Positions 195-64,000 of a stretch of 64,000 nt of DNA are shown in pieces. Origin of the DNA: Acholoe squamosa (lineage: Eukaryota; Annelida; Polychaeta; Phyllodocida; Polynoidae); NCBI GenBank assembly GCA_949317995.1, contig OX439043.1:4704501-4768500 (forward strand), given 5' to 3'. The notes beneath the pieces are model-generated. The model was given only the letters and a program-made list of their open reading frames with translations. It made no database searches and was not told where the DNA came from. How positions within the stretch are numbered: position 1 is the first letter of the stretch; each line of letters starts with the position of its first letter. A program made the position numbers and the translations under genes.

Positions 195-438
195 CTGCCC
201 ATGTCGACAACGTACAAACACAATTTGTAATCATTCACACCTCCACCCAAAGGATTCTTCTATACATAAAACTGTTACCTGCAAATTCTATAAAACCTTA
301 TTAGTGAGATAGTCACTATTTATTAGACTTTTGAAACACAAACATCTAATACGAAAATTGATGTTAAACCGTGCTACTAGAAATACGCATCGCTCCACAA
401 GTTCTACGCCTGACTCTATAGTGTCAAGGTCATACAAC

Positions 439-1863
439 ATGGCAGCTTCCGCTCCAAACAAAAACATCAATTTGCAAGGCGAAAATAATGACTCTGAAGA
501 AGACGTAACTAACTATTTGCCTGCCCTGAAGTACAAAGCACCTCCTAAGGCTATAATTGATAAAATCAATGAGCTTGATGATAGACTCAAAGCCCAGGAA
601 AGTATCTCAAGGCGAACTATCAACCTACTCAACGGCATGGAAATGCGAATGTTTGGTCCCAAAGGAATACCCCAAGACAAGACGGCTACCATCCCCGAGC
701 TGGAAAGCAAGTTAAATGTACACGATACTACACTTTCACAACATAGTGATAACATTGAAAAAAACATCACTGATATATCCAAGCTAAGTGAAGTATCGGA
801 TAAGCATACTGATCAATTCGCCAAAGCTGATGGGGAAAGGAAAAAGAGAATCCTGATCATTGAAGGACTAGATGAAGACCGTCCCGGTAGTCTACGAGAC
901 ACCTTAGACCAACTAACAAATGATCTGGGCCTAGACTTCAATAACTCTGTCGCTGAAGTACTCTACAGAAGAGGGAAAAAGCAAACCCCTAATGAAAATC
1001 AGAAGAGGAACCCTAACTACAGACCTCGTAAGAGACCAGTGGTAATTATCTTCTCATCTGCCCATTATAAGATACAAATCTTCTCTAAAATCAAAAATCT
1101 GCAAGGAAACAACACATGGAAGGGTGTACACCTGACCGATGACGTGAGTCCCGAAGAAAAACTCATGCAAAAAAACCTTCGATCCATACAAGCCCTGGCA
1201 AAAAGCAAAGACATTGAATGCACTGTTAAAGGTACACAAATTATTATCCAAGGACACCCCTATGCATACAAAGACATTGGAAACCTACCCATGGACCTGT
1301 CGTTGAAGAATGCTAAAACTGTCGAAACACCTGATGGTGTGGCGTTCCAAGGTGAACATTCAATCTACTCAAACCTCTACAAATGTGATATTCAATTTGA
1401 AGGTCATTCATATGACTCACTGGAGAGGGCCTACCAAGCCAAAAAAGCCTTAGTTTGTAACCAAGTACATATATTAAGAAGAGTAAATATGGCAAAAACA
1501 CCCCTAGACAGTATGTATGCTGCCAAGTCTTGCAAATTAAATAATGAATGGTATGATGAGGATGAAACCGTGATGAAGAGACTACTAGAAATAAAATTCT
1601 CTCAACCTGCTATGCTACACGAGCTAACCCAAACACAGGGAAAATACTTATATGAGGCCACCCAAAACAAGACATATGGATCTGGGTTTCATCTGGGCCA
1701 GAAGGACATCATAACCATCCAAAATGTAGCAAAAAATGAACATGAGTGCGCAAACAAACTGGGCGAAATGCTGATGAACCTAAGATATCAACACACGAAT
1801 GAGAGACCCCTTCCAACAAGTGAAGAAATCAGACTAAATATTGCGACAGCCCAAGGGCCATAA
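439..1863 (+). CDS. LINE A ORF1 protein: coiled coil, RRM-like RNA-binding region and NADAR domain
   Basis: This is a 474-residue nucleic-acid-binding ORF1 protein. I chose the ATG at 439 for its good context (A at -3, G at +4); an in-frame ATG at 361 has a weak context and would add 26 residues. Residues about 30-130 are charged and helical, as in ORF1 coiled coils. Residues about 135-260 start with KRILIIEGLDED, an RRM-like first strand as in L1 ORF1p, followed by a basic stretch and a C-terminal-domain-like segment (GVHLTDDVSPEE). Residues about 303-450 match the NADAR/DUF1768 pattern: SNLY, an S-x-E-x-x-YQAKKA motif, a Trp in the middle, VMKRLLEIKFSQ, L-x-EAT, YGSG, and a final NKLGEMLMNLR. 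NADAR proteins are N-glycosidase-type enzymes linked to ADP-ribose and NAD metabolism, and some remove ADP-ribose from guanine in DNA. The domain call is by motif only; activity of this copy is inferred. Confidence 0.85.
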   Translation: MAASAPNKNINLQGENNDSEEDVTNYLPALKYKAPPKAIIDKINELDDRLKAQESISRRTINLLNGMEMRMFGPKGIPQDKTATIPELESKLNVHDTTLSQHSDNIEKNITDISKLSEVSDKHTDQFAKADGERKKRILIIEGLDEDRPGSLRDTLDQLTNDLGLDFNNSVAEVLYRRGKKQTPNENQKRNPNYRPRKRPVVIIFSSAHYKIQIFSKIKNLQGNNTWKGVHLTDDVSPEEKLMQKNLRSIQALAKSKDIECTVKGTQIIIQGHPYAYKDIGNLPMDLSLKNAKTVETPDGVAFQGEHSIYSNLYKCDIQFEGHSYDSLERAYQAKKALVCNQVHILRRVNMAKTPLDSMYAAKSCKLNNEWYDEDETVMKRLLEIKFSQPAMLHELTQTQGKYLYEATQNKTYGSGFHLGQKDIITIQNVAKNEHECANKLGEMLMNLRYQHTNERPLPTSEEIRLNIATAQGP

Positions 1864-2282: not shown

Positions 2283-5153
2283 ATGCAATACAGTGACATG
2301 ATAAGCCTAAAGGGCACCAGAGGATTGCGCTTCATGCATTTAAATGTTCGAAGTTTTAGGGCAAACTATGCTACTATATGTGCTGAGATATACCCAGCTA
2401 ATCTGGAAATCTTTTCTTTCTCAGAGACCTGGTTAAAAAATGAAGATGATGAAATGAATTATCAATTTTATGGTTACACACGCTATAGATTAGATAGACA
2501 AGTAACTGATAGAAAAGGAAATATAAAAATTGGTGGTGGGATTTGTGTTTTTGTGAAACATGGCTTGTCCCATGACTATGATATGTTCCCACTTCTGAAT
2601 AGATCCGACAAAGACATTGAGGTACAACATATTTTAATTACTAAAGATCACATGAAACCTATAATTTTTCTTAATGTATACAGACCCCCTGATGGAGACA
2701 AAAATGAATTTGTCAACATATTTGAAGGAATCATCTCTAATATTGAAAATAGGAACAAATTTGAAATTGTGGCCATGGGAGACTTCAATTTTAATGTAAA
2801 TGATGACAATGATGTCCTGAATAACCTACTAAATCGAATGAAAACCTATGGCCTAAAACAAGAAATCAAAAACTGCACACGGAAAAATGCTATTTTAGAC
2901 CTAATCTTTACAGATATCAGACCAAATTTTGTGAAATCAGGGGTCTCGAATAACTACATATCCGATCATCTACCCATTTACCTAATCAGGAAAAAATGGA
3001 AAATTCCTGAAGAAAAAGTGTATATAACAGGTCGTTCTTATTCACGTCTTACAGATGAAGTCCTTTTCAATGAATTTGATAATTATGATTGGGAAACCTT
3101 TAATAACACAGAAGATGTAAATTGTGCTTGGATTCATTACGAAAATGCAATACGTAATATACTAGATAGACACTGTCCGATTACTAGTTTTTTAGTATCC
3201 AAACACAGGGACCCTTGGATGAACCAAAATGTTTTTGAAATTATTAGAGAAAAAAATATGAAACTATGGAAAGCGAGGAGGACAGGTAGTAATATAGATT
3301 GGAAATCATCTTCTAAATTCCGAAACAAAGCGAATAAAATAATAGACAAAGCCCGGAAAAACTTCTTTAAAGAACAATTAGAAACATATAAAAATGATCA
3401 TAGAAAATACTGGCGAGTTATTAACAATCTACTACCTGGTCAGCCAAACCGCCCAAAAGACATAATATTAAATGATCATGATAATAATAGCACTTTGGTT
3501 CCCCACGACAAAATTCCTGACTTTATCAATCATTACTTTGTAAATATTGGTCCTGTACTTGCGAAAAACTTGAATATTCCATGGAAACCTTATGATAACT
3601 GCATAGCTGATAAAATGGAACCTTTTAATACAAATATACAAGAAGTTTCCAAAATCATACATGACATACAAGTGTTCAAATCCTCAGCAATTAATAATAT
3701 ATCTACATCAGTGTTAAAGAAAGTATTTAAACATGATCCTGGAAAACTGGTTAAGATCTTTAACCTCTCGTTTCAAACCAATACAGTACCAAATTCCTGG
3801 AAAATATCTAGGGTAACTCCAATACCGAAATCTGGCAACTTGAAACTTGTAAACAATTATAGGCCTATCTCTTTGTTACCTTTGCCCTGTAAATTAATAG
3901 AAAAAATTGTGCATAATAGAGTTTATGGTTTCTTATTGAAAGAAAAAATATTAACGTCACACCAAGGTGGCTTTAGACCTGGTTATAGTACAGTGGATAC
4001 TCTTGCACGGTTTACTGACGATATTAAAAGAAATGTAAATATGAATAAATCTACAATAGCCTCCTTTATAGACTTGCGTAAGGCTTTTGACACCGTAGAC
4101 CACTCTATCCTTCTCACTAAGCTTAACCATTATGGTATAAGATCAGATAACTACCATTGGTTTGAAAACTATCTAACAGATAGATACCAAACTACCCTAG
4201 CAAATAATCTTCAGTCTGGAAAGGAGAGGGTGGTCTGTGGGGTACCCCAGGGATCGATTTTAGGTCCTTTACTTTTTTTAATCTATATTAATGATGTAAC
4301 AAATTGTATAAAAAAATGTAAAATTAAGCTTTATGCAGATGATACTGTGATATACTCAGCTCACAATAACTTTGATAGCGCTAAGCGAGAACTACAAAAT
4401 GACCTCGAAGTCTACTCCACCTGGTGTATACAGAATAAGCTATCCATAAACGTGGAAAAAACCAAAGTAATGATCTTCTCTTCAAGCTCAAAAAAATTGA
4501 ATACCCTATCTGCTAACATATCCTTGAATGATCAATTACTTCAGGTTGTACCTAGTTATAAATACCTTGGTGTAACTCTCGATCCTCTATTGCACTATAA
4601 TATACATCTAAATAATCAATCAAAGACTATTGCCTACAAAATGTACAAACTTTGTCATCTACGCAAGTATCTTGATGTAAAACTTGCTATAAGAATTTAT
4701 AAGACCACTATTTTACCCTATATGGAATATGCAGACATATGTTTTATGAGTACGTATGATAAATATTTAGATCCACTCCAATATTTTCAAAATAGATGTA
4801 TAAAAATATGTCTTCAAGTACCTCATCTAACTAGTACAAATCTAATACATAATATGAATAAGATAAACTTCCTACATGATAGACGATACATTCACCTCTT
4901 AAATTTCATGTATATTCGGTCTCGTGATAAAGACTTTCTAGATGTTAGACCTATAAGAACCAGATTACATGATGCCCCTACATTGAATGTTATAACCCCA
5001 AACTGTCTTATGTATGCACGGAGCGTTGAATATCTGGGTGCCATAAGCTGGAATGCTCTGACAACGGGTAGGAGAAATGCCCCTACCCTAGACCAGTTTA
5101 AAACCGAATCTAGAAACTACTTGGCAGAACTCTTTCCCTATGTCAGACCATAG
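2283..5153 (+). CDS. LINE A ORF2: APE-type endonuclease and reverse transcriptase
   Basis: This is the 956-residue LINE replication enzyme. It nicks target DNA and copies the element RNA by target-primed reverse transcription. The N-terminal apurinic-type endonuclease shows SETW (residues 47-50), the YRPPDG loop, GDFN (166-169) and SDHLPI (227-232), so the catalytic landmarks are present. The reverse transcriptase has NNYRPISLLP, FIDLRKAFD (around 600), GVPQGSILGP (around 653) and the catalytic YADD (684-687), followed by KYLGVTLD. The C-terminal tail (about 750-956) has no RNase H and no obvious CCHC knuckle. This fits a Jockey/CR1/L2-like lineage, though the exact clade needs a tree. The ATG at 2283 begins just before the conserved RFMHLNVRS start of the endonuclease. 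The frame is uninterrupted, so this copy may be competent. Confidence 0.93.
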   Translation: MQYSDMISLKGTRGLRFMHLNVRSFRANYATICAEIYPANLEIFSFSETWLKNEDDEMNYQFYGYTRYRLDRQVTDRKGNIKIGGGICVFVKHGLSHDYDMFPLLNRSDKDIEVQHILITKDHMKPIIFLNVYRPPDGDKNEFVNIFEGIISNIENRNKFEIVAMGDFNFNVNDDNDVLNNLLNRMKTYGLKQEIKNCTRKNAILDLIFTDIRPNFVKSGVSNNYISDHLPIYLIRKKWKIPEEKVYITGRSYSRLTDEVLFNEFDNYDWETFNNTEDVNCAWIHYENAIRNILDRHCPITSFLVSKHRDPWMNQNVFEIIREKNMKLWKARRTGSNIDWKSSSKFRNKANKIIDKARKNFFKEQLETYKNDHRKYWRVINNLLPGQPNRPKDIILNDHDNNSTLVPHDKIPDFINHYFVNIGPVLAKNLNIPWKPYDNCIADKMEPFNTNIQEVSKIIHDIQVFKSSAINNISTSVLKKVFKHDPGKLVKIFNLSFQTNTVPNSWKISRVTPIPKSGNLKLVNNYRPISLLPLPCKLIEKIVHNRVYGFLLKEKILTSHQGGFRPGYSTVDTLARFTDDIKRNVNMNKSTIASFIDLRKAFDTVDHSILLTKLNHYGIRSDNYHWFENYLTDRYQTTLANNLQSGKERVVCGVPQGSILGPLLFLIYINDVTNCIKKCKIKLYADDTVIYSAHNNFDSAKRELQNDLEVYSTWCIQNKLSINVEKTKVMIFSSSSKKLNTLSANISLNDQLLQVVPSYKYLGVTLDPLLHYNIHLNNQSKTIAYKMYKLCHLRKYLDVKLAIRIYKTTILPYMEYADICFMSTYDKYLDPLQYFQNRCIKICLQVPHLTSTNLIHNMNKINFLHDRRYIHLLNFMYIRSRDKDFLDVRPIRTRLHDAPTLNVITPNCLMYARSVEYLGAISWNALTTGRRNAPTLDQFKTESRNYLAELFPYVRP

Positions 5154-5703
5154 CACATTATTATTTAATAATACTTTAAATTACTAATATGTTACTTGCC
5201 ACTACCTTGTGAACAAAACTGAAAACCATGTTACTATCTAGAATCAAACCTTACATTAATTTGTTTTACACTGTCTAATCCTTATATACTCCCCTCCCAT
5301 CTCATCTTCGTTATAATATAATATATTGTGTCAACTGTCTTGCATACCATAAACCGAAGAAAGGATGAACCAGAAGAATCAACCCTTACACAGATCACTG
5401 TGGGGATGAGGTTCTCTTCCTTCATTATTATCTCGATTTACTATCTATTATTTTCTTTTATTGTGATTCATTGTTTATCAATGGTATTGATTATTACTTT
5501 TGATATATGCTATGTTACTCGGTGACTCCTAAAATATAAGCTAAAAAACATATATACCTATGTATTGTATGTCTATGATACTTCTAGATATTACCGGTAA
5601 CCTATGCATCGAAACTTTCTTTCATCAATGTACCAAACAATCAAAGGACCAACCAAATGTATAGAAATCTTGGGATAATAAAGTAAATTCAAACTAAAAA
5701 AAA
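5154..5703 (+). other. LINE A 3' UTR with poly(A) signal and tail
   Basis: This is a 550-nt AT-rich 3' UTR. It has AATAAA at 5677-5682 and an A8 run at 5696-5703 where homology to the duplicated flank starts. LINE B ends in a similar way (AATAAA, about eight bases, then an A tract). Confidence 0.65.
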
Positions 5704-6421
5704 GGAGACCACCATGTTGGTCTGTCCTGGGGTTGCTAATAAGTGTATCTGATATATGTATAGGAGTTGGTGGTGCAAGGATTATCTGTAAGGAGTGACT
5801 TCATTAAACAAGCTGGACACTCAGATGTTGGCATCTGATATAGTTAGAATATGAGGACCAGTTGATTTGATTAGGCATTATGAGATAACATTATGCTGAA
5901 ATTTGCTGGACGGTAGCAGAGGCAAGTCAAAATCAACCTATCAGTATAACGAGTATTACCAGGGTAATATAATGTTCAAACAAAAGTGAATTAAATATCT
6001 AAACTATAGCTTAGTCAAACTTGGTGTTTCTGGTAGGACTTGAATAGCATGGTCGTAGCTTATTTAGAAATGCCATCCAAAGTGACCATGTTAGTCACTG
6101 TCACACCCAAACAGTAGATCCATAATCACTAACAAGTCAATACTCTCTCCTCTGTTGACCTCCAGGCACCCCTCCACCCAGATCAGTGCACTGATGGAAT
6201 ACCAGACAGATTCATAATGTGTTTCTCTCTTCACACATGTCAACTCATGCCTGGCTCTATATCAGATGTAAAAATGGACTAACTACATCTACAGAGATAA
6301 TCCTCATCAGAGGACACATGTTCTTTCAGTTTATCCATGGTGAAAGCTTTGACTGTTTTCTTTTTAGTTCAAGTAATTACTTGATGCTCATGTGCACCTT
6401 GCAAATTACAGCTATTATCAT

Positions 6422-26157: not shown

Positions 26158-26454
26158 CGAGTAGAGACGTGTGCGAGCGGGCGCTCTCCCATTTCTCCCC
26201 AACGGAAGGATTATTCAGATATGTATTACTCTCATATCGTTCAACAAAGGATATAAAGAATGGAAGCACATATCTAGGGTGAGGCCTAATGAAAATTCGC
26301 TACGTATACTTGGAAAACTGAGTCTGGCTGATTGAGCTATATGGACCGTAGCCGGTGAAGTCAATCAGTACATATATATATACAGCGTGTCAAGCTTGAC
26401 TGAATAGGGGTCAATCACCGCGCACTGTGTCCCTGTTGCTGTCAATTTGTAAAC

Positions 26455-28189
26455 ATGGAAGGCATACTAGATAAAGACGAGGTTAGGAGAGTAATATCTG
26501 AAATATCCAAACCAAAGGCCACCAGGGCTGCCACTACACCTGATGGGATGGTAATGACCCAGCAAAAAGTTGGGAGTGTTCTGGAATATCTGGTAAATGA
26601 GTCCCAAGCATTAACACAGGCGGTACAATGGAGGAACGATGACCTTATTGACATCAATAAGTCTACTGAAGCCCTGAAGCTTGAACTTAGCAGTATGCAA
26701 TCCAAAATGAATCAAATGGAGAAACAGATTAGGCTTAATAAGGGCAATATTGCTGAGAATCAGGAGCAGATATGTATCCTTGACAATGCTCTAAAGCGAA
26801 GGAACTTAATAGTAGAGGGGCTGAAATTTCATCAAGGTGAGAAAACAAAAGACGTTGCCTATGCCTTAATTACCAGTATAATTCCAGACTTTGACTATTA
26901 CCTCATAGACTACGCATATAGACAGGGCAACCCTGGTAGGAGTGATAGAAATATGATTATAGTGTTCGTCAAAGGAGAAATTAGGGATATAATCCTATCA
27001 AAGTAAAACGAGCTAACTGAAGACCAGAGACTATTCACAAGTGTTCATCTCAGAGGACTGTAACATTGTGATTAAAAAACAGAAAGCTGAAGCTAGCGCT
27101 ATAGCCAGAATGGGGCTGGACACGGGACTAGATATAAAGCCTAGAGGTCGAGGTGTATCATACAATGGCAGATATTACCCACATCATGCACTAGGTGAAT
27201 TGCCTCCTGAGTTAAGACTCTCCAATACAAGGACAGTGGTTACTGATACATTTATTGGATACCACAGCGAATTGGCTCCTCTGTCAAATTTTTTTCCCTG
27301 CTCTATCACTACCAATGGTCTGGTCTTTAAGAGTGTGGAGCATGCCTTCTGCTATAGAAAAGCAATCTTTGCAGGCAGACCGGACAAAGCTGAACGTATT
27401 TTAGATGCTGAAACAGCCTATGGGGCCAAGAAATTAGGGAAATTTGACTGCCTAGGATGGTCAGATAGAGAGGAAGACGAGCTACTCGAGCTGAACATAT
27501 TAAAGTATGAGAAAGACCATGATCTCCTGGAAATGCTATTATGTACAGGAAATAGAAAATTGCTGGAATGTACATCCTCAATGTATTGGGGAACAGCTGC
27601 CAATCTCCACTCGTATGTGGTAAAAACTAATAAATTCAAAGGTAGAAATAGAGGTGGCGTTGTCCTAATGCAGGCTAGGAGGCAGCTGAGGGAAAAGTAC
27701 ACTCCATATGTAGGATCTACTACTGATGAAACAAAAGGGCTAGTCAAGCAAGACATCCCCATCACTCCTGTGCCACCAGACGATGAAATTGAACAGCAAC
27801 AGTCTGCAGCAGCCCCAGGTATAACTCCTGACCCAACACTTATCCCTGATCAAGCCGCAACACCATTACCACAAAGACAACACCGTCAGCAGGAACAACA
27901 ACAACACCAACAAGGCCAACAGCAACCGCAACATGAGCAACAACAACAGCAACAACAGACAACAACATCTCCAAAACCTGTTATAGCCATGAAGGACCTT
28001 CAGGCTGCTCATGGACCAAATACTCCTACAAGAAACGCTGCAAACATAGTGAGCACTGCCTCAGCTGACCAAACCAAGAAAATGAGATATCAATGCAAAA
28101 AGAAACATGATGCACCCAGAATAGAAAGAAGCCATGAATGGAATGCCATGCAAAAAATGATGGGTTTTTTCTCCCCTAAAAAGAAATAG
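26455..28189 (+). pseudogene. LINE B ORF1: coiled coil, RRM-like region, NADAR domain, Gln-rich tail (broken)
   Basis: The frame opens at ATG 26455 and hits a TAA at 27004-27006. It continues in the same frame to about 27048 and then needs a shift to the frame that runs to the TAG at 28187-28189. The first part has coiled-coil heptads (26640-26790) and RRNLIVEGLKF, the same RRM-like strand as in LINE A. The last part starts with a linker similar to LINE A (GELPPELRLSNTRT versus GNLPMDLSLKNAKT) and then a NADAR domain at about 27245-27700. Its NADAR motifs are LSNFF, SVEHAFCYRKAI, a central GW, L-x-CTGNRKLLECT, YWGTAAN, and GRNRGGVVLMQARRQL. A glutamine-rich stretch follows (27790-27960). The extreme C-terminus is basic with MQKMMGFFSPKKK, which resembles a PCNA-interacting peptide. 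The breaks are probably post-insertion mutations. Confidence 0.82.
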
Positions 28190-28848
28190 TGTATTAAAAG
28201 CAATTAATAAACTGTGAATGTATGATTCGTATTTACTAATAAAATCCTTTTTTTCACCTCAAGTGATAGATCAGGCACGGTACTGTTGGCTGACTATACA
28301 CATTATGTTATGCTGGAAAGGCATACCTAAGAGGTTATGGAATAATGGATTGTCTACGTCTCAGTCAATTATGATTGTATCAGAGTACATGTATCATCAA
28401 CCACACCGCGTCCAAATTTAGCTACCGCTAGTGTATTACCTACAGCGACTCCTACCCTCAGGACGCTGTTAGTAACCAATGGGGCTATGACCTACTAAAA
28501 CTTGAACAGCTGATTGCTATATATACCCCAAATGCTGTATACTCTAACATGTACATAGCGTTTTGCCCCTCTTACTGTTGTTTCATGTTTTCTCACTATA
28601 CATATTTAACTTGATATCTTGATATCCTTATTATAATTTTGAATTGACATATATCATGTTAATTAATTAAAGACTAAGAATATACATATATCATGTTTAT
28701 TGTAATAATTGGACCAGGAGAGCGCCAGCTGATCCCCTTTTTCTATGATGACTGCCATACTTGAGAAATGCTTTTTCATATCAGGTATCATTCCTTTTCA
28801 CCCTCATTCTCACCTGCATTTAATTGGTAAAAATCGTATAAAATATAT
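28190..28848 (+). other. LINE B inter-ORF spacer
   Basis: This is 659 nt of AT-rich sequence with no long frame. Near the end there is a pyrimidine-rich tract (28790-28815). The corresponding spacer in LINE A is 419 nt. How ORF2 is translated across such a gap is not evident from the sequence. Confidence 0.6.
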
Positions 28849-31657
28849 ATGATTCTCCTACACGAATTAACCCCTATGAAGGGGCTAAAAATAATCTGTA
28901 CCAACACTAGATCAATGTTTAAGAAAAGAGCTGATGTATTTAAATTGGTAACAGGAGCTGATATAACTGGAATAGTAGAAACCTGGCTTTCCCCATCTGT
29001 GTTAGATGCAGACTTACATGTACCAGGCTATCAATATGTCCGGTTGGATAGATTTCCTTTTAGAGAAAAGTCTGCGGGTGGTGTCATGTTATACTTGAGA
29101 GATCATTATATTGCGTGCCCAGACCATAATTCATCCTTTATAACAGAAAACTATGAAATCCTATGTGTGGATGTAGAAATTAGTGTCGTAAAATATAAAG
29201 TTTTTGTGTGTTATAGACCACCAGACTGCAATGATCTTAAATCAATATATGCCAAACTTGGAGAATTGAAAAGTACGGTAACCAAAAACAGAAAATTAAT
29301 TATTATGGGTGATTTTAATGTAAATCTATTTGACAAAAAAGATGTAAATGATTCTTCTGTCGATGATTTCTGTACTGAAAACAACCTTTTTCAACTGATT
29401 AATGTTGTCACTCGACCAAGATCTGGGACACTGTTAGATCATATTTATACCAACGTTCATAATGCCTCTACTTATGGAACACTGGATTACCATATCTCTG
29501 ATCATAGCCCAATTTTCTTAGTAATTAAATGTGAGCGACATAAAATAAAGAAGAAAAGGGTTAAAGCTAGGTCATATAGAAATTATGACTTTTTAACCTT
29601 AAAAAATGCCCTAGTAAACTATAGCTGGGAAGAAGTATTGTTGCAAGATGACCCAAATGATATGTGGAAAAGCATTTTTAAGGTGATAAATAATGTTCTG
29701 GATGAAATGTGCCCTCTTAGAACGATAATTATACCTGAGTATACACCATCATGGTTAACTGAAGATATATTAGACTTAATGAAAGTAAGAGATGGTTTGT
29801 ATAGGACAGCAAAGAATTCGATGAGTGAAGATGACTGGAGAATAGCCAACTTTTATAAGCATAGAGTTCAAACCGAAATATTTAAAAATAAAAAGAAAGA
29901 AATGTCAGATTTATTAGAATACAGGAAAAATGACCCTGCCAAATACTGGGAGGCGATTAAAAAGGTACTACCCAATAAGACAGGTGCTACATTGATTAAA
30001 CTCAGAAATAATACAACAAATCTAGTTATTCCTCCCGAAAATTGTGCTGAATATATAAATAGTTTTTTCACTGGTATTGGAGAAAAATTAGCTAATGCAC
30101 TCCCACCTGGTGATAGAGATGAAAATCTAGCTACCCCATACGGTACTATAGTAGATGAAACTAATCTTCTCTTTGAGCTGTCCTATATAGACTTCATCAA
30201 ACTGGTCAAATCAATAGATATTAAGAAACCCTCAGCTATGATACATTGTAAGTCTTTTGTTATTAAGGATTCCTTATTTGCTATTCCAGATGTCTTCAGA
30301 TCACTGTATAATAAATGCTTGACATCGGCAACCTTTCCTGATGACTGGAAACGAGCCACTGTCATACCCTTACCTAAAAAAGCAAACTCTATGAATGTGG
30401 AAGACCTTAGACCGATTAGTCTATTGCCTATTATGGGAAAACTACTTGAAAAGATTGTATGTAACAGATTACAATTATATATGGAGAGACAAGAATTGCT
30501 GTGTCCTACTCAGCATGGTTAGAGAAAAGGTCATTCTACTCAAACAGCTATTACTGAACATCTGAAAACAATTATTGATAATTATATTATAAATAAGCCT
30601 ACTTATTGTCTATACATCGATTTCAAAAAAGCTTTTGACACAGTCTCACATCCAAAATTACTCCAAAAATTACATGCTCTAGGACTTAACAATAAGACAT
30701 GTGATTTCTTCAAAAATTACTTATCAAATCGACAGCAGTGTACCTTGGCTAATTACACTGAAACCCATTACATATGGGGTACCTCAGGGTTCAGTTTTGG
30801 GTCCAGTATTGTTTTCCATTTACATTAATTCGTTAGCTAAAGCAGTTGACTGTAAAATTACACTATATGCAGATGATGCGGTTGTATCGGTGGACTCACC
30901 TTATATAATGAACCAGGTCATTCAGAAGCTTGTATCATGGTGCCTTAACAATACCCTGACTATTAATGCACAAATGACCAAATGGATGTCTTTTAATACA
31001 AACCCCAATCATAGAACTCAATTCCTAATGAACCATGTTATTCTTGAAAAGGTGGAGAATTTTTCCTACCTAGGCTTATTAATGGATACTGAGATGAAAT
31101 TTGTAAAACACAGAGAAAATACTATGCAAACTATCAGACACAGGATTTTCCAAATGGGACGAGTAAGATGTCTGTTAGATGAAAATGCATCTCTAACTGT
31201 TTTCATATCTATGATATTACCTATATTTGATTATTGTGACTATATATGGGATCGTGATTATAGAGGAGAAAATAGAGATCTTCAAATGTTACAGAATAGA
31301 GTCTTAAAAATGGTATATAAAGTTAAACTAGAAGAAAATCCTGTTATGACCACAATACAGATACAAGAAAGGAGCAATTGTTCAGAACTTTGTGTTAGAC
31401 GAGACCTACATCTATTATCTTATGGTTTCATGTTGACCCAGAATATAAATCTTGTGGATAGTAGAAATATAGCTACACGATACCATCAGGGTATAAGATT
31501 GTTAGTCCCACATTGCCTGAAACCAATTGTACTAAGAAGCACCTACTACAGAGCCATATTAAGGTGGAATCAACTAAAACCAGAATATACTGTTATTAAT
31601 AACTTCTATGAATTTAAAAATAGTGTTAGTAAAGTCTACCCAAATTGCTTTATATAA
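28849..31657 (+). pseudogene. LINE B ORF2: endonuclease and reverse transcriptase (broken)
   Basis: This is homologous to LINE A ORF2. The endonuclease shows ETWLSPS, YRPPDC, GDFN (residues 154-157) and SDHSPI (near 219). The reverse transcriptase shows LRPISLLP, IDFKKAFDTVSH, YGVPQGSVLGP and the catalytic YADD at 30866-30877. A TAG at 30520-30522 interrupts the frame just after PTQHG, and a frameshift near 30745-30775 moves it to the frame that ends at 31657. No RNase H is present. The catalytic motifs remain readable, so decay is recent. Confidence 0.9.
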
Positions 31658-43704: not shown

Positions 43705-43776
43705 GCCCCGATAGCTCAGCGGTCAGAGCATTCGCTTGGTACCCGAAGGACCCGGGTTCGAGTCCCGGTTGGGATT
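43705..43776 (+). tRNA. tRNA-Thr(GGT)-like sequence, gene or SINE head
   Basis: The sequence folds as a cloverleaf: acceptor 43705-43711 with 43769-43775 (G-U pairs and one C-A mismatch), D arm with TAGCTCAGCGG (box A), an anticodon loop TTGGTAC giving anticodon GGT, and a T arm CCGGG-TTCGAGT-CCCGG with a perfect box B (GGTTCGAGTCC). A TTTT terminator follows at 43781-43784. A C31-C39 mismatch and the acceptor mismatch suggest a tRNA-derived SINE or a pseudogene rather than a fully functional tRNA. Confidence 0.6.
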
Positions 43777-57580: not shown

Positions 57581-57856
57581 TTAGGTCACTGCAGCCCTGG
57601 CAAGTCTTGGACTGCTGCGGAGCACTACACCATCCCCAGCTCCCTTATTCAACCTGGCAGACTTCCGAGCCTTTTCTAGGGATTTTGTAGCCGACAATTT
57701 CCCTTTCCTCTTCAGTCCGCCTGCACCCGTCGAGACTTTTTTTACTACACCGCGCCGAGATAGTGTTGGCGCTGGCATTACTGTTTTACTCGGTACCTTT
57801 CTAGGTCTCCCGGGAACTCTGCCTGGTAATTTCTTTAACCGGGGTACCCTATCCAT
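57581..57856 (-). pseudogene. Basic C-terminal tail of Gypsy pol with AT-hook-like motif
   Basis: The frame starting at 57856 overlaps the end of the integrase frame by 22 nt in a -1 arrangement. It encodes about 91 residues rich in Lys/Arg with PGRPRKVP, an AT-hook-like core (GRP flanked by basic residues), ending in RSSPRLARAAVT. It is probably the true integrase C-terminus displaced by an indel. An overlapping small ORF is the alternative. A DNA-minor-groove or chromatin-tethering role is inferred. Confidence 0.45.
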
Positions 57857-60800
57857 ATTGGATATGGATTTGGAACCTTCTCGTCAGAATTATCTCTTCC
57901 TAGCCAAGGACGTAGCCTATCTATGTTGGACTTATACACCCTTCCTATATCGGATTGTATCAATACCGTACAATCGCTGATCACAGTGGTAACTGTAAAC
58001 GGACCATCCCAATTGGATGCCAGTTTAACATGTCTCAGGGGTTCATGTAATCGTAAAACACGATCTCCGGGTTTAAAGTGTCTTATATTTAAACCAGTAT
58101 CGTATCCGGCCTTTTGCCAGCGGGCACTTTTATGTAATTCTAGACGAACTACTTCATATGCCTTTTTAAACCGGTCTCGTAATGCTTCCACAAAAACTAC
58201 CTGACAAGGTAATTCCGGATTCATTCCGACGACACCAAATACCAAATCCGCTGGCATTATTAAATCCTCTCCAAATACTAATAAATTTGGTGAGCAGTTA
58301 GTACTCGAATGAACAGTGCCATTATAAGCGTGTGTTACAAAGTCGCATTGTTCATCCCAATCATCCATATTGTCATTTACAAGTGACTTTAGGACTTGTA
58401 TCAGGGTTCTGTTGAACCTTTCTACCAGCCTGTCACTTTGTGGATGATACGGATTGGTCCTAGTTTTACAGATGGCGAGATACTCACACATACTTTGCCA
58501 GAGATTGGATTCAAACTCTCTTCCCTGGTCACTGTGAAGCATTAAGGGCACTCCAAAAGTTAGTACCCAACCCTTCACAAAAGCTTCCGCACAAGTAACA
58601 GCCTTATGATCCGGTAGTGGGAAGACTTTAGTATACTTGGTATAATAGTCACACACTACCATCATGCACATATTGTCATTCGGCGTCTTATTTAGTCCGC
58701 TAATAATATCAATTCCTATTCGGGCGAACCTTACCCCGAATAATTCTTGGGATAAGGGCAGCTTACCGGGTCCTTGACCGGGTTTGTTTTTACAACAATC
58801 CGGGCAACTAGCCACCCATCGGAGTAAGTCCTGCGACATACCCGGCCAGTGGTATCTCTTCGAGAGACGAGCTAAGGATTGTTTCTTTCCGAAGTGACCA
58901 CTTGTTCTGTGTCCATGACAATAATACATGATGTCTGCTTTTCACCATTGTTACATGGTTTCCAGCGGTACAGTATTCCTCTCTTGACTTCTAGCTCCGT
59001 CCATTGAGCTAAAAACCTTCTCATTTCCCTATTCTCCAGCGAGGCTATAGGCCTAGCTGGACATATACCCTTTGGTACCAATTGTAGAAGCCTAGCAGTA
59101 ACTGAGTCAGCCTCCTGGAAGTTCCTTATGGTTTCTAAGGACCAATCCAAGACACTGCCTATACGTGTTTCGAAAGGAATTCGAATCGAGGCTGCTACTG
59201 CTTTATGGATCCCACAATCAGTACAATTCAGATTGTCACATTTCCGAATTGGTATTCGGGATAATGCCTCAGCATTCACGTGCTTATTTCAGGCACGATG
59301 CTGGATCTGACTATTTTCTAGTCCGAATTCAGACAGATGGGCTAGCCATCTCCCTATCATTCCTTCGGCATCCCGAAAGTTTAATAACCATCTTAGGGAG
59401 GAATGATCTGTACGTAATGTAAAGTTAGTTCCCCACAAGAAGTGTTTAAACTTTTTGGTATACACCATGACAGCTAATAATTCACGTTTAGTTGTGCAGT
59501 AATTTCGCTGTGTTTTACTCAGTGTATTGCTAGCGAATGCTATCGGGACCTCCACTCCACCTTGGACTTGGGAGAGGGCTGCACCGATACTTTCATTGCT
59601 AGCATCTGTATCCAGTATGAAATGCCCATCCTCGGATGGGTATTGCAGTACTGGAGTACTCGTGAACAAGGCTTTCAATTGTTGGAAAGCTTGTTCTTGT
59701 TCGGTTCCCCATGGGAACTTTTCTTTCCTACTACCGGGGGTCCATGTTGTTAGGATTTGTAAGGGATAACTCACCCGAGAATAATTCGGTATGAAGTCTC
59801 TATAATACGATCAGAATCCTAAAAATGACCTTACTTCCTTTGGACTGTTTGGTACTCCCCAGTCCGTTACTGCCTGAATTTTTTCAGGATCAGCTTTTAT
59901 TCCTTCTTCAGATATTATCCGGCCCAAATAATTTATGGACTTTTTAAACAAATTACATTTCTTAGGTTCAAGTTTTAAACCGTTAGATATTATTCTTCCT
60001 AATACTAACTTGAGGTTGTGCAAGCATTCGTCAAATGTTTTGCCGAATACTATTACGTCGTCAAGGTAAACCAGGCACTTTTTCCATAACAGATCACTTA
60101 AAAGTGTTTCCATCATGGCTTCAAAGGTTGCCGGAGCATTACATAAGCCGAAAGGCATGACATTATACTGGAACAAACCTATATGACTTGAAAAAGCCAT
60201 ATCATCCGGGTTCATTCCTACTTGCCAGTATCCGGATTGTAAGTCCAGAGTACAAAACCACTTATTACCTCCTAAAGAATCGATTGTTTCATCAATTCTT
60301 GGCAATGGATACAAATTTTTCTTCGTTAAACCATTTAGTTTCCTATAGTCTATACAGAACCGGATAGACCCATCCTTTTTCGTCACCATACAAACTGGAC
60401 TACTCCAAGGACTGCTAGATGGAACTATTACATTCTGTTCTAGCATCTTAGCTATTTCTGCTTCTGCTACCCTCTTCTTAGGCAGGAGTAGCCTCCGATA
60501 CGGGATCTTGAAAGGCTTCGCTTCTCCCGTATCAATGGTATGTAATACCTCCGTAATCTTTCCGAGTGGTTCACCCGGAACGGCGAACGCCCTCTGATAC
60601 TCAATCAACAACTCTTTGAGTGTTTCTTTCTGCGAAGGATCTTCTAGACTCCTATCCTCATACATTGTCTTCAGATCTTCGGTCCATTCTTGTTCAACCA
60701 TTTTAACCGTAAGGTTCAGGGAACAGCTAGTCACTGTCTCAGCCAGTATAACGGTACCGAAATTAGCTCCTTTTTTCAAGTACAGGGTCCGGTTACCAGT

Positions 60801-61724
60801 ATTGGAAACCGGTATGACTGACCAAGCCCCATTGGCTACTATCGTGTCAACCGATTCCAATCCTAAACTAGCCAGCATAATCGTATCCGGCTCAATTACT
60901 GCATCCTGGTTCCTCAACTCGGAATTGCTCCGAACCAGAACATCACAGGCCACTCCCAGAGGGATCTTTACAGTTTGAGCGACGGACGCTACACTGCTAA
61001 CTCTCAATACACATTGTACTTTCACGGGATAAGGATGCTCTACGCTCAGTTCCCCAGTTCTCGGGTCCAAGACTGCTCCATATAGGGCCGCAAAGTCTAA
61101 TCCTAATATCCCTTCATCTGCTATTCCGGCAATTGTAGTAGTTATCACATATTCCTGAATACCCTCGAATTGCAATTTTGCACACATCCTACCATATGTT
61201 TGCATCTTACTACCGTCGGCCGTTTGGGCGTTTCCTCCCAATAGGAGAGTATCGCGCACATCCGGTATAAGATCCGCTACTTTCCGAGAGACACAGGAGT
61301 GGCTAGCTCCCGTATCAACTAGGAATTCAGCGGGTCTTCCATTGATATTAAGCGAAACATACCACCGCCTTCCATGCAACATGGAAGGTACATCAGTTAT
61401 TGCAGAATCCTCATTATTCACACCCGGGTCCTGTCCACATCCTTTTAAGTATTCCAGACAAGGATGGCCCGGGGGTAGGTGAGCACTACCAACTCTGGCC
61501 AACAAATGACCTCCTACCTCTAATCCGGTACCGGGTTTCCCCTGTGCTCCTTGGGCACTTGTTATATCTGATTCCCCAATCTCCTGAGTGGGCTGTTCTA
61601 CCACCTCAGTATTGGGCGAATGTGTTACTCCATTTGGATCTGCACCACTGCTGGTGGTATCATGGCAAGTGACTATTCTGGGATCCTGTTGCTTGCCCGT
61701 AACAGAATCCCCTCTCAGTTTTCC
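57835..61724 (-). pseudogene. Gypsy pol: protease, reverse transcriptase, RNase H, integrase (broken)
   Basis: The pol frame opens after a TAA at 61725-61727. The aspartic protease shows LVDTGASHSC (near 61310) and ILGLDF. The reverse transcriptase shows RFCIDYRKLN, LDLQSGYWQ, MPFGLCNAPATF and the catalytic YLDD (60058-60069). A TGA at 59811-59813 follows FLGF. RNase H shows TDAS, KRELLAV and TDHSSL, but the last acidic position reads NAEALSR where Asp (NADALSR) is usual. A second TGA lies at 59289-59291. A frame break near 58930 precedes the integrase (58929-57835). The integrase has an H-x4-H...C-x2-C zinc-binding head and D, D, E residues in GIDII, HSDQG and VERFNRT. The remaining catalytic motifs are intact, so decay is recent. 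Confidence 0.9.
61715..61724 (-). promoter_or_regulatory. Candidate -1 frameshift window between gag and pol
   Basis: The pol frame is one base back relative to gag. It is open only downstream of the TAA at 61725-61727, and gag stops at 61715-61717. A shift must therefore happen within GGAAAACTGA. GGAAAAC is a weak relative of the X-XXY-YYZ slippery heptamer. No pseudoknot was checked. Confidence 0.45.
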
Positions 61725-62987
61725 TTATCGTCTACTGTGGAAAAACTCATTCGTGTTCTATACACCGGTTTCTCTGCCACACATTCGGCAGCGAAATGGC
61801 CTAATTCCTGGCACCTATAGCATCTTCTCTGGGACTTATCCACCCTTAGGCGTCGCAGAGCATTCGTCAATCGGGTAACCAAATTCTCCATAAAATCCCC
61901 CTGAGCAGTTGACACTGCCATCTGAGGAGTAGAGAAAGTGGGTAACTGTGGTACCGGTAACTGAGCTACCGGTTTCTGCGGCACCTCTAGTTTCGGTGCT
62001 ATCGATGATGCATCCCCTACGGATTTCTGAAAGTTTGATTTCTTCTTGAAACCTCCCTTTCGGTACCTCTTCTGCCGATAATATTTACCGGCGATCTGTA
62101 CAGATCCGATATATTCCCCGTTATCATCGGAGATATATTCGTAATCGGAGTCCATCAAACCGGACTCAACTGCAGCTGTGTGTTCCGGTAGAGGTGGACC
62201 ACTGTTAACTGCCGAAGCTCTTGCAGGGGGTGCATTGGCACCTAGCAACCGCTTCTTCCTATTGTAATTCTCGATAGCCAGGAACAGATCATTGAAGGAG
62301 GTATCATCCTTCTATTCATCCCAAGCGATAGTCTTATGTTCTGGATCCCGGAGCCCGGCAATGAATTGAGTGAATAACTCTTGTATCCAACATTCATCGT
62401 CGTATTCCTAATTAGGCCTAGCTTTACTGAGCAGGTCCTGTAGTTCCAGCCCAAAGACTTTATGTGACTCTCTGGGTTTCTGTGTCCGTCTCTTAAAGGT
62501 GATCCAAGGATCCTCTCGGACAATAGAACCGAATAGGTAGCAGGCACACTCCAACAATTCGTCGTAGGTGCCTTCTATTCCATATTCTTTTCTCCATCTG
62601 TTCAGGGCTACTTTGCCTCCCTTACTTAGCCAACAGACTAAATACGGTAATGCTTCGTCTTTAGTCCATCCGCTACAATTCACCTCGCCTACAAAGATTT
62701 GATAACTATCTTTCCAAGGTTCATTCGGATCATATGGCGGAGGTATCCGTCCCATACGGCGCGCAGGATTAGAACAACCCCTGAGCCGATTGGCTTCTTT
62801 CAGGCTCCAATCCATCACTTCGACCACATCGGCTCCTTTACGATAGCAGTCGATTCCCAATCCCTGAATGCATTTACTATTATCAAAAATTTCCTGCATT
62901 CCGGGAGACATGGAAGAATGCCTATTCATTCTCTTAGGCTTTCCTCCGTCTCTTTGATTAGCACCATAAGGAGCATTACCTCCTCCT

Positions 62988-63437
62988 CCTGGTCCTCCCG
63001 GTGGATATCCTCCACCACCGGATCCTCCTGACAGATGTCCTCCGCCACCGGATCCTCCCGGTGGATATCTTCCACCTCCTGATCCTCCTGACGGATATCC
63101 TCCGCCTCCGGATCCTCCCGGTGGATATCTTCCACCTCCGGATCCTCCTGACTGATATCCTCCGCCTCCGGATCCTCCCGGTGGATATCTTCCACCTCCG
63201 GATCCTCCTGACGGATATCCTCCGCCACCGGATCCTCCCGGTGGATATCTTCCACCTCCGGATCCTCCTGACGGATATCCTCCGCCTCCGGATCCTCCCG
63301 GTGGATATCTTCCACCTCCGGATCCTCCTGACGGATATCCTCTGCCACCGGATCCTCCCGGTGGATATCTTCCACCTCCGGATCCTCCTTACGGATATCC
63401 TCCGCCTCCGGATCCTCCCGGTGGATATCTTCCACCA
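62988..63437 (-). repeat. 60-bp minisatellite coding Gly/Tyr-rich gag repeats
   Basis: About 7.5 nearly identical 60-bp units are each made of two similar 30-bp halves. In the gag frame a unit encodes GGGGYPSGGSGGGRYPPGGS. One unit has a base change that creates the TAA at 63389-63391. The other frames give acidic or hydrophobic repeats and are shadows. Confidence 0.9.
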
Positions 63438-64000
63438 CCGTCATAGCTTTGGTTGTGGCCTTGCCCAAAATAATTTGAATTTTGGGTATTGGTATAACCG
63501 GCATTATAACCGTCATAGCCGTAGCTATTTGCTTGGGATCTCCTGACACCATGGGAGTCACCGGACGGAGGTTGACTACCATCGGCATACTTTCCCATAT
63601 GTGGGTTTTGTGCATTTTGCACACCTACATAAGGTGGATGAGATGGAGCATTCCGATGATGACCATCAGGCATTGCATTTCTTGGCGGGGGACGTGGTGT
63701 GCTTGCGCCGGGACCAGGGGTGGGTGTCGGGGGATCAGGTTGTTTCGGGTTATTCCAATTCCGATCGTGTTTACCCGAACCATTGTTCCTTGAATCAGAG
63801 GGATCACCTGCTCCACCAGCAGTTGTATTCATCAAAAAAGCTATTTGAGGTACTGGTGGGGCTCGTATATTGTTCCCGGGTGGAGTAGGATGGGAATCAC
63901 CTTTAATGGGTGCTCCTGTTGCTTTAACTGTGGAATCTACTCCATTCGACGGTTTATTGGGATTATAAATACCGCCTGCTACATGTTTATCAGCTCCATC

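What the first reader, a model, noticed from the sequence alone, without database searches (positions are those of the whole stretch)
1345..1790. NADAR (ADP-ribose-related) domain built into a LINE ORF1 protein
Seen in sequence: LINE A ORF1 ends in a domain with the YbiA/DUF1768 motif series (SNLY, S-x-E-x-x-YQAKKA, VM-x-x-LLEIKFSQ, L-x-EAT, YGSG, NKLGEMLMNLR), in frame after coiled-coil and RNA-binding regions. Established: NADAR proteins act on N-glycosidic bonds of ADP-ribose-type compounds, and members reverse guanine ADP-ribosylation of DNA made by DarT-like toxins. Inference: the retrotransposon protein could erase ADP-ribosylation from its RNA, cDNA or target DNA, or process NAD-derived caps, countering a PARP- or DarT-type host defence. 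I do not know of a described LINE with this domain, but cannot search.
Basis: partly seen in the sequence, partly recalled or inferred. Interest (0 to 1): 0.88.

Follow-up and report, generated by a model that had tools for sequence, protein, structure and literature searches.

The report
NADAR-type enzyme domain in LINE retrotransposons
The RNA-binding protein of a recently active jumping gene in this animal-like genome ends in an enzyme domain whose relatives strip ADP-ribose off DNA bases, and related jumping genes in the same genome carry it under strong selection, which suggests a counter-measure against a host chemical mark.

The parts
361..1863 (+). LINE A ORF1 (500 aa): coiled coil, RRM, CTD, NADAR
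   Evidence: open frame 313-1863; start at 361 supported by a similar N-terminus in P0001; nearly identical open copies elsewhere in the genome
547..828 (+). predicted long helices, taken as coiled coil (residues 63-97 and 110-156)
   Evidence: AlphaFold2 secondary structure; low to middling pLDDT
838..1305 (+). RRM and CTD of the human LINE-1 ORF1p kind (residues 160-315)
1354..1788 (+). NADAR domain (residues 332-476)
1423..1425 (+). Glu355, equivalent to E43 of Phytophthora NADAR
   Evidence: role of E43 from PMC11543638
1444..1446 (+). Lys362, equivalent to K50 (ADP-ribose phosphate)
   Evidence: Met in 7 of 33 readable related copies
1654..1656 (+). Glu432, equivalent to E125 (Glu marks the YbiA subfamily)
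   Evidence: PMC11543638
2283..5153 (+). LINE A ORF2 (956 aa): endonuclease and reverse transcriptase, no RNase H match
   Evidence: Pfam RVT_1 1.9e-42, Exo_endo_phos_2 1.3e-6
5677..5703 (+). probable 3' end: AATAAA then a short A run
   Evidence: read by eye; no exact repeat of 9 or more bases was found between 1-420 and 5600-6000, and the 5' end may lie before the window
26455..27006 (+). LINE B ORF1, first part (coiled coil, start of RRM); this copy is broken between frames
   Evidence: weak tblastn to LINE A, E 0.005
27041..28189 (+). LINE B ORF1, second part: CTD, NADAR (27269-27691), Gln-rich tail
   Evidence: Pfam NADAR 2e-20; CTD flank 18.5 bits against 8.6 for the best of 2000 shuffles
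28849..31657 (+). LINE B ORF2 in pieces (endonuclease, reverse transcriptase)
   Evidence: Pfam; 29.5-31% identical to LINE A ORF2

Best explanation
LINE A is a recently active non-LTR retrotransposon. Its ORF1 protein is an L1-like RNA chaperone (coiled coil, RRM, CTD) with a YbiA-type NADAR hydrolase at its C terminus. The hydrolase rides on the ribonucleoprotein and cuts the N-glycosidic bond of ADP-ribose on nucleic-acid bases (guanine most likely) of the element's RNA, its cDNA or the nicked target. It so removes marks laid by host or invader ADP-ribosyltransferases that would block reverse transcription or flag the element. Shown here: the fusion, the predicted fold, the conserved catalytic pair, the spread and the purifying selection. 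From the literature: hydrolysis of guanine-ADP-ribose by other NADARs. Pure inference: activity of this domain, delivery on the RNP and counter-defence. Estimates: domain real 0.99; part of proliferating LINEs 0.98; catalytically active in most lineages about 0.75; nucleic-acid ADP-ribose the main substrate about 0.4.
For: NADAR by Pfam and fold. One model matches both human L1 ORF1p and NADAR structures. E43 and E125 are invariant in 10 of 10 and 9 of 9 readable divergent ORF1 NADARs, which share 19-33% identity between lineages. They are invariant in 33 of 33 readable of the 34 LINE A-related copies with NADAR, and in 29 of 29 and 28 of 28 readable of the 30 best genome loci. All 32 of the 48 copies with RRM-CTD have NADAR. 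Median dN/dS is 0.07 for NADAR (9 pairs with dS<1.5, of 36 pairs of 9 representatives), 0.05 for RRM-CTD (10 pairs), 0.19 for the N-terminal region (20 pairs). Recent activity: 9 of 48 ORF2 matches, window copy included, are 99-100% identical over residues 1 or 19 to 956, and four ORF1 copies are 99.3-99.8% identical in DNA over the full 1503 bases. NADARs hydrolyse guanine-ADP-ribose in DNA (PMC11543638, sections read). Six edible clam species have guanine-N2 ADP-ribosylating activity on DNA (PMC11209040, passages).
Against: No biochemistry. K50, whose equivalent is essential for efficient hydrolysis in E. coli C7 NADAR, is Met in 7 of 33 readable LINE A-related copies (one subfamily) and in P0007, and Arg in P0001, P0004 and P0005 and 5 of 29 readable own loci. 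Arg kept in vitro activity but did not rescue cells; and Ala at the E43 equivalent had only a minor effect in vitro, although it too failed to rescue cells. R79, D130 and W133 vary among ORF1 NADARs. NADARs also act on small molecules such as riboflavin intermediates. No writer enzyme could be searched for in this genome: the tool did not complete.
Confidence: 0.42

Rival explanations
1. The domain hydrolyses soluble NAD-derived or ADP-ribose-derived signals, or NAD caps on RNA ends, and so damps a host alarm rather than cleaning nucleic-acid bases.
For: Proposed for phage NADARs (PMC9503650, passages). PMC12477816 proposes processing of RNA intermediates. Catalytic glutamates kept.
Against: PMC9503650 argues that NADARs of animal RNA viruses act mainly on macromolecular ADP-ribose. 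Fusion to a nucleic-acid chaperone favours a bound substrate (inference).
Confidence: 0.22
2. It is an ADP-ribose reader that tethers the ribonucleoprotein to ADP-ribosylated breaks or chromatin at integration sites, with little or no catalysis.
For: PARP1 and PARP2 act at L1 integration sites and aid human L1 (PMC8535693, passages). One subfamily lacks the K50 equivalent.
Against: The catalytic glutamate pair does not vary where readable, which a pure reader would not obviously need. K50, R79 and W133, which vary, are among the ADP-ribose-binding residues in 8bau.
Confidence: 0.16
3. It is a structural or nucleic-acid-binding module; the ancestral enzyme activity is no longer used.
For: An N-terminal extension of DarT1-associated NADARs may bind single-stranded DNA. 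Active-site periphery has drifted.
Against: Invariant Glu pair; among 150 columns only 8 are invariant and two of these are the pair.
Confidence: 0.12
4. Chance capture of a host gene downstream of ORF1 in one copy (transduction or assembly artefact).
For: The genome also holds two apparent stand-alone NADAR frames, L014 and L015.
Against: Same CTD-NADAR order in P0001, P0002, LINE B and many copies; dN/dS 0.07; no copy with RRM-CTD lacks NADAR.
Confidence: 0.01

Closest known systems
Tx1 LINEs of Crassostrea gigas with YbiA-family NADAR in ORF1 (PMC12477816, one sentence; passages read)
   Same: NADAR in a LINE ORF1 of an invertebrate
   Different: Here the ORF2 looks Jockey-type by motif and length (recalled marks, no phylogeny), the ORF1 is of the coiled coil-RRM-CTD type, and several NADAR ORF1 lineages share one genome.
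Ectocarpus Gypsy elements with NADAR in Pol (PMC12477816)
   Same: retroelement with a YbiA-family NADAR
Phytophthora nicotianae NADAR (8bau) and E. coli YbiA (2b3w)
   Different: 22-25% identity; LINE A differs at K75, G78, R79, D130 and W133 of 8bau; fused to an RNA chaperone
DarT1-NADAR antitoxin (PMC11543638)
   Same: NADAR superfamily
   Different: Asp in place of the second Glu and an extra Lys, both absent in LINE A; operon partner
CR1/L2 LINEs with an esterase or PHD domain in ORF1 (PMC4120745; abstract, passages and section 9 read)
   Same: extra domain built into ORF1 of a Jockey-group LINE
   Different: A survey of 448 elements; the words NADAR, YbiA and DUF1768 do not occur in its main text
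Human LINE-1 ORF1p
   Same: coiled coil, RRM and CTD by predicted structure
   Different: no NADAR (recalled); no Pfam match to L1 ORF1 models was reported at E up to 10

Membership tests
NADAR superfamily (PF08719) | Pfam score above the gathering cut-off | tested here: met
   57.1 against 35.1 bits
NADAR superfamily (PF08719) | NADAR/YbiA fold | tested here: met
NADAR superfamily (PF08719) | E43 and E125 of the active site | tested here: met
   E355 and E432
NADAR superfamily (PF08719) | K50 (phosphate-binding Lys) | tested here: inconclusive
   K362 in LINE A (met); Met in 7 of 33 readable related copies; Arg in P0001, P0004, P0005
NADAR superfamily (PF08719) | hydrolysis of ADP-ribosyl or riboflavin-intermediate N-glycosidic bonds | not testable with these tools
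   needs protein
YbiA riboflavin-intermediate N-glycosidase (TIGR02464 equivalog) | score above the equivalog cut-off | tested here: not met
   55 against 73.7 bits
DarT1-associated NADAR antitoxin | Asp at the E125 position and Lys at the K75 position | tested here: not met
   Glu432 and Met at the aligned K75 site (features)
DarT1-associated NADAR antitoxin | DarT partner gene beside it | not tested
   the search for the DarT family in the genome did not complete
Type II LINE ORF1 (coiled coil, RRM, CTD) | RRM and CTD of the L1 ORF1p fold | tested here: met
Type II LINE ORF1 (coiled coil, RRM, CTD) | Pfam model of L1 ORF1 | tested here: inconclusive
   none reported at E up to 10
Jockey-group LINE (CR1, L2 and kin) | apurinic-type endonuclease plus RT, no RNase H, ORF2 near 950 aa | tested here: met
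   group marks recalled
Jockey-group LINE (CR1, L2 and kin) | RT phylogeny | not tested
   no reference LINE RTs of this group in the tools; LINE A and B ORF2 give 249 and 131 bits to each other against 59.5 bits to the best solved RT
Tx1 LINE | RT phylogeny and target-site specificity | not tested
   no Tx1 reference available

The most novel reading that the evidence does not exclude
Several LINE lineages of one animal-like genome took up ADP-ribosyl hydrolases, possibly more than once, and keep them under strong selection because the host marks retroelement nucleic acid with ADP-ribose on guanine. That would mean an unrecognised animal anti-transposon defence and its eraser.
Probability: 0.27. 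Interest if true: 0.92.

Novelty: new variant of a known kind. Interest (0 to 1): 0.66.

Why it matters
The physiological role of NADARs in animals is stated to be unclear (PMC11125620, passages). A retrotransposon family that keeps a NADAR, with recently active copies, gives a direct assay: replace two glutamates and measure retrotransposition and ADP-ribosylated guanine. If the counter-defence reading holds, nucleic-acid ADP-ribosylation is an animal genome-defence mark. It also warns annotators: 'riboflavin biosynthesis protein' genes in invertebrate genomes may be retrotransposon ORF1s.

Tried and rejected
Chance similarity: rejected. One-copy artefact: rejected. YbiA equivalog and DarT1-antitoxin residues: tested and not met. 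Single origin of the ORF1 NADARs: with 24 rows not rejected (AU p 0.135). With 36 rows the RRM-type ORF1s as one clade give p 0.048 (a group partly named after the first tree), and RRM-type plus the 757-774 aa type plus L041 give p 0.126; starred branches force at least two changes and long branches are present. So one or several captures stays open. CTD flanks are similar across lineages, LINE B included, but the flank used (LINE A residues 150-325) overlaps by about a dozen residues the stretch that VIA aligns to 8bau (from 313), and not every flank test was positive: P0013 flank 5.2 bits and LINE B first part 7.7 bits lie within the shuffles, and P0003 flank is unlisted. VIA lists only a re-aligned set of Foldseek hits; no family is excluded by absence.

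Led nowhere: viral-contig scans with LINE A ORF1, ORF2 and with alignment A7 and the genome-contig scan with P0001 found no relative; no target-site duplication of LINE A was found; tRNA and Rfam scans did not help to name the host; the profile search with A1 returned only P0001. The script treated minus-strand loci in the wrong orientation and ended in an error; one search repeats it corrected. The residue counts (26 readable of 34) were taken from clipped domains; one search recounts them on whole open frames (33 readable of 34) and replaces them.

Rows dropped: P0012 and P0017 (truncated, chimeric) from the first tree; L008 from the second; L002 and L005 were not used in trees; dN/dS used 9 of 17 full-length frames, and pairs with uncomputed (saturated) dS (16 of 36 for NADAR, 23 for RRM-CTD, 10 for the N-terminal region) or dS of 1.5 or more were left out of the medians. 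Of 173 phage and 22 plasmid records with a match eight regions were fetched.

Full report
Observation. The window starts with a non-LTR retrotransposon. Pfam finds NADAR (PF08719) at residues 332-476 with E 3.3e-15, 57.1 bits against a cut-off of 35.1. NCBIfam TIGR02464 matches with E 1.1e-14 but below its equivalog cut-off. The profile of four LINE NADARs finds the Phytophthora NADAR structure 8bau with E 4.4e-22 and E. coli YbiA with 2.1e-17. ORF2 (2283-5153, 956 aa) has endonuclease and reverse transcriptase domains and no RNase H match.

Active site. PMC11543638 (sections 11-13, of section 13 the first part) describes E43, K50 and E125 of the Phytophthora enzyme and tests the E. coli C7 equivalents E88, K95 and D171. 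D171 and K95 are needed for efficient hydrolysis. E88A has only a minor effect in vitro, E88Q is inactive, and changes at all three abolish rescue of cells. LINE A has E355, K362 and E432 at these places; LINE B has Glu, Lys and Glu (codons at 27338, 27359, 27566). In 10 divergent ORF1 NADARs, 8 of 150 columns are invariant, and E43 and E125 are two of these. In that set K50 is Lys in 6, Arg in 3 and Met in 1; three random columns are jointly as conserved as E43, K50 and E125 in 194 of 100,000 draws. In the 34 LINE A-related copies with NADAR, read on whole open frames, both glutamates are kept in 33 of 33 readable, and K362 is Lys in 26 and Met in 7. All seven Met copies are in the most divergent subfamily fetched (about 71% in ORF2). 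R79, D130 and W133 vary.

Not one copy. LINE B, at 26.4-31.7 kb of the same window, is a broken copy whose ORF1 piece has NADAR with E 2e-20. Its ORF2 is only 29.5-31% identical to that of LINE A. A search of about 5.8 billion proteins found P0001 and P0002 with the same domain order. The domain search found 15 more. Of these 17 proteins, eight have an upstream flank similar to the RRM-CTD of LINE A by phmmer, and two more (P0002, P0007) by a profile; the others are fragments, stand-alone or not similar there. P0010 is annotated as an Ostrea edulis riboflavin-biosynthesis-like protein, and P0011 is a stand-alone NADAR.

The genome. After many unanswered tries the window's own genome could be searched: 1,481,437,319 bases, 63 contigs, window at C9:4704501-4768500. 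PF08719 gave 3,224 first-look candidates. Only 150 were scored and all 150 pass the cut-off; by my count of the table seven have stops inside. How many of the unscored candidates are real is not known. LINE A ORF2 gave 48 scored matches of 28,340 candidates: nine (window included) are 99-100% identical from residue 1 or 19 to 956, and all 48 are at 71% or more. I fetched the stretch upstream of the other 47. Counting the window copy, 34 of 48 have NADAR, 29 of them in the same open frame as RRM-CTD, 3 with the two in different frames, and 2 without a detected RRM-CTD. The other 14 have neither. In these, similarity to LINE A begins after ORF1 or inside ORF2, or is absent, as 5' truncation would give. 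RRM-CTD was found in 32 of 48 and all 32 have NADAR. LINE B's ORF1 piece gave 115 matches of 4,533 candidates, five of them in open frames of 594 aa without stops at 90-97% identity.

Selection. Between nine representatives of LINE A-related ORF1s, the median NG86 dN/dS is 0.07 for NADAR (9 pairs with dS below 1.5), 0.05 for RRM-CTD (10 pairs) and 0.19 for the N-terminal region (20 pairs); 36 pairs were tried and many were saturated. The domain is therefore held about as tightly as the RNA-binding core. ORF1s of L054, L055, L056 and L059 are 99.3-99.8% identical to the window's over all 1503 bases without gaps, so the element moved recently.

Diversity. The 30 best NADAR loci fall into 12 clusters at 70% identity. 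Two (L014, L015) are short frames without detected RRM-CTD that group with bacterial-type NADARs and may be host genes. Fourteen belong to a family with open frames of up to 774 aa in which NADAR is followed by a tail that I read by eye as SGNH-hydrolase-like; Pfam gives no such match. Seven have RRM-CTD and NADAR in one frame (L016, L017, L019, L021, L025, L026, L027). L024 and L028 fall with the bacterial and stand-alone group in the tree. That all of these are LINEs was not shown: an endonuclease was seen downstream within the 1.5 kb held only in L041 (where minus-strand loci were read in the wrong orientation), and longer stretches could not be fetched. Whether NADAR was captured once or several times is open.

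How it probably works. ORF1p of L1 type forms trimers and coats the RNA (established for L1, recalled). A NADAR at its C terminus would put many hydrolase sites on the RNA, the cDNA and the nicked target. NADARs remove ADP-ribose from guanine in DNA (PMC11543638). Guanine-N2 ADP-ribosylating activity has been found in six edible clams, and CARP-1 was cloned from one (PMC11209040, passages). Animal RNA viruses carry NADARs in their polyproteins and these are argued to act mainly on macromolecular ADP-ribosylation by the host (PMC9503650, passages). PARP1 and PARP2 act at L1 integration sites (PMC8535693, passages). The best explanation is an eraser carried with the element; the steps after 'NADAR fold with catalytic glutamates under selection' are inference.

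What is known. PMC12477816 (passages) reports NADAR in Ectocarpus Gypsy elements and says in one sentence that ORF1 proteins of several Tx1 LINEs of the Pacific oyster in Repbase also appear to have it; it suggests RNA processing. My ten paper searches listed no other report. Some lists were partial (30 of 104 papers, 15 of 340, 10 of 642), while searches were listed in full. They cover open-licence PMC papers only, and Repbase itself was not available. PMC4120745, a survey of 448 Jockey-group ORF1s, does not use the words NADAR, YbiA or DUF1768 in its main text. Calling LINE A Jockey-type rests on ORF2 length, domain content and recalled motifs, not on a tree.

Verdict. Real, widespread in this genome and selected; the bare fact of NADAR in a LINE ORF1 has been noted once. 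I rate it a new variant of a known kind, with high interest because function can be tested directly.

Noticed in passing
window 26404-31657: A second, only distantly related LINE with NADAR in ORF1 in the same 64 kb; this copy is broken, but open 594-aa relatives exist in the genome.
   Followed up: yes
L032:895-3216:-, L038:259-2529:+: A 14-copy cluster with frames of up to 774 aa: NADAR followed, by eye, by an SGNH/esterase-like tail; no Pfam match for the tail. It would join two ORF1 add-on enzymes.
   Followed up: partly
L014:1486-2151:-, L015:1336-2076:-: Two stand-alone NADAR frames with the best scores in the genome search, grouping with bacterial-type NADARs; possible host genes.
   Followed up: partly
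P0010: Ostrea edulis 'riboflavin biosynthesis protein VVA0006-like' has a Cys/His-rich N terminus (knuckle-like by eye, no Pfam match) before NADAR; it may be a retrotransposon ORF1 under a metabolic name.
   Followed up: no
L091, L092, L093, L095, L096, L098, L100: One LINE A-related subfamily has Met at the phosphate-binding Lys, as has P0007: a natural test of whether catalysis is needed.
   Followed up: partly
L058: Upstream of a truncated LINE A copy lies another NADAR-like stretch on the opposite strand, 32.5% identical.
   Followed up: no
window 57835-62929: Gypsy-like LTR element on the minus strand (protease, RT, RNase H, integrase, zinc knuckle), frames broken up, with a 60-bp tandem repeat next to it at 62979-63440.
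   Followed up: no
window 43705-43776: tRNA-Thr-like sequence with anticodon GGT, which as I recall is unusual for animal nuclear tRNAs; perhaps the head of a SINE.
   Followed up: no
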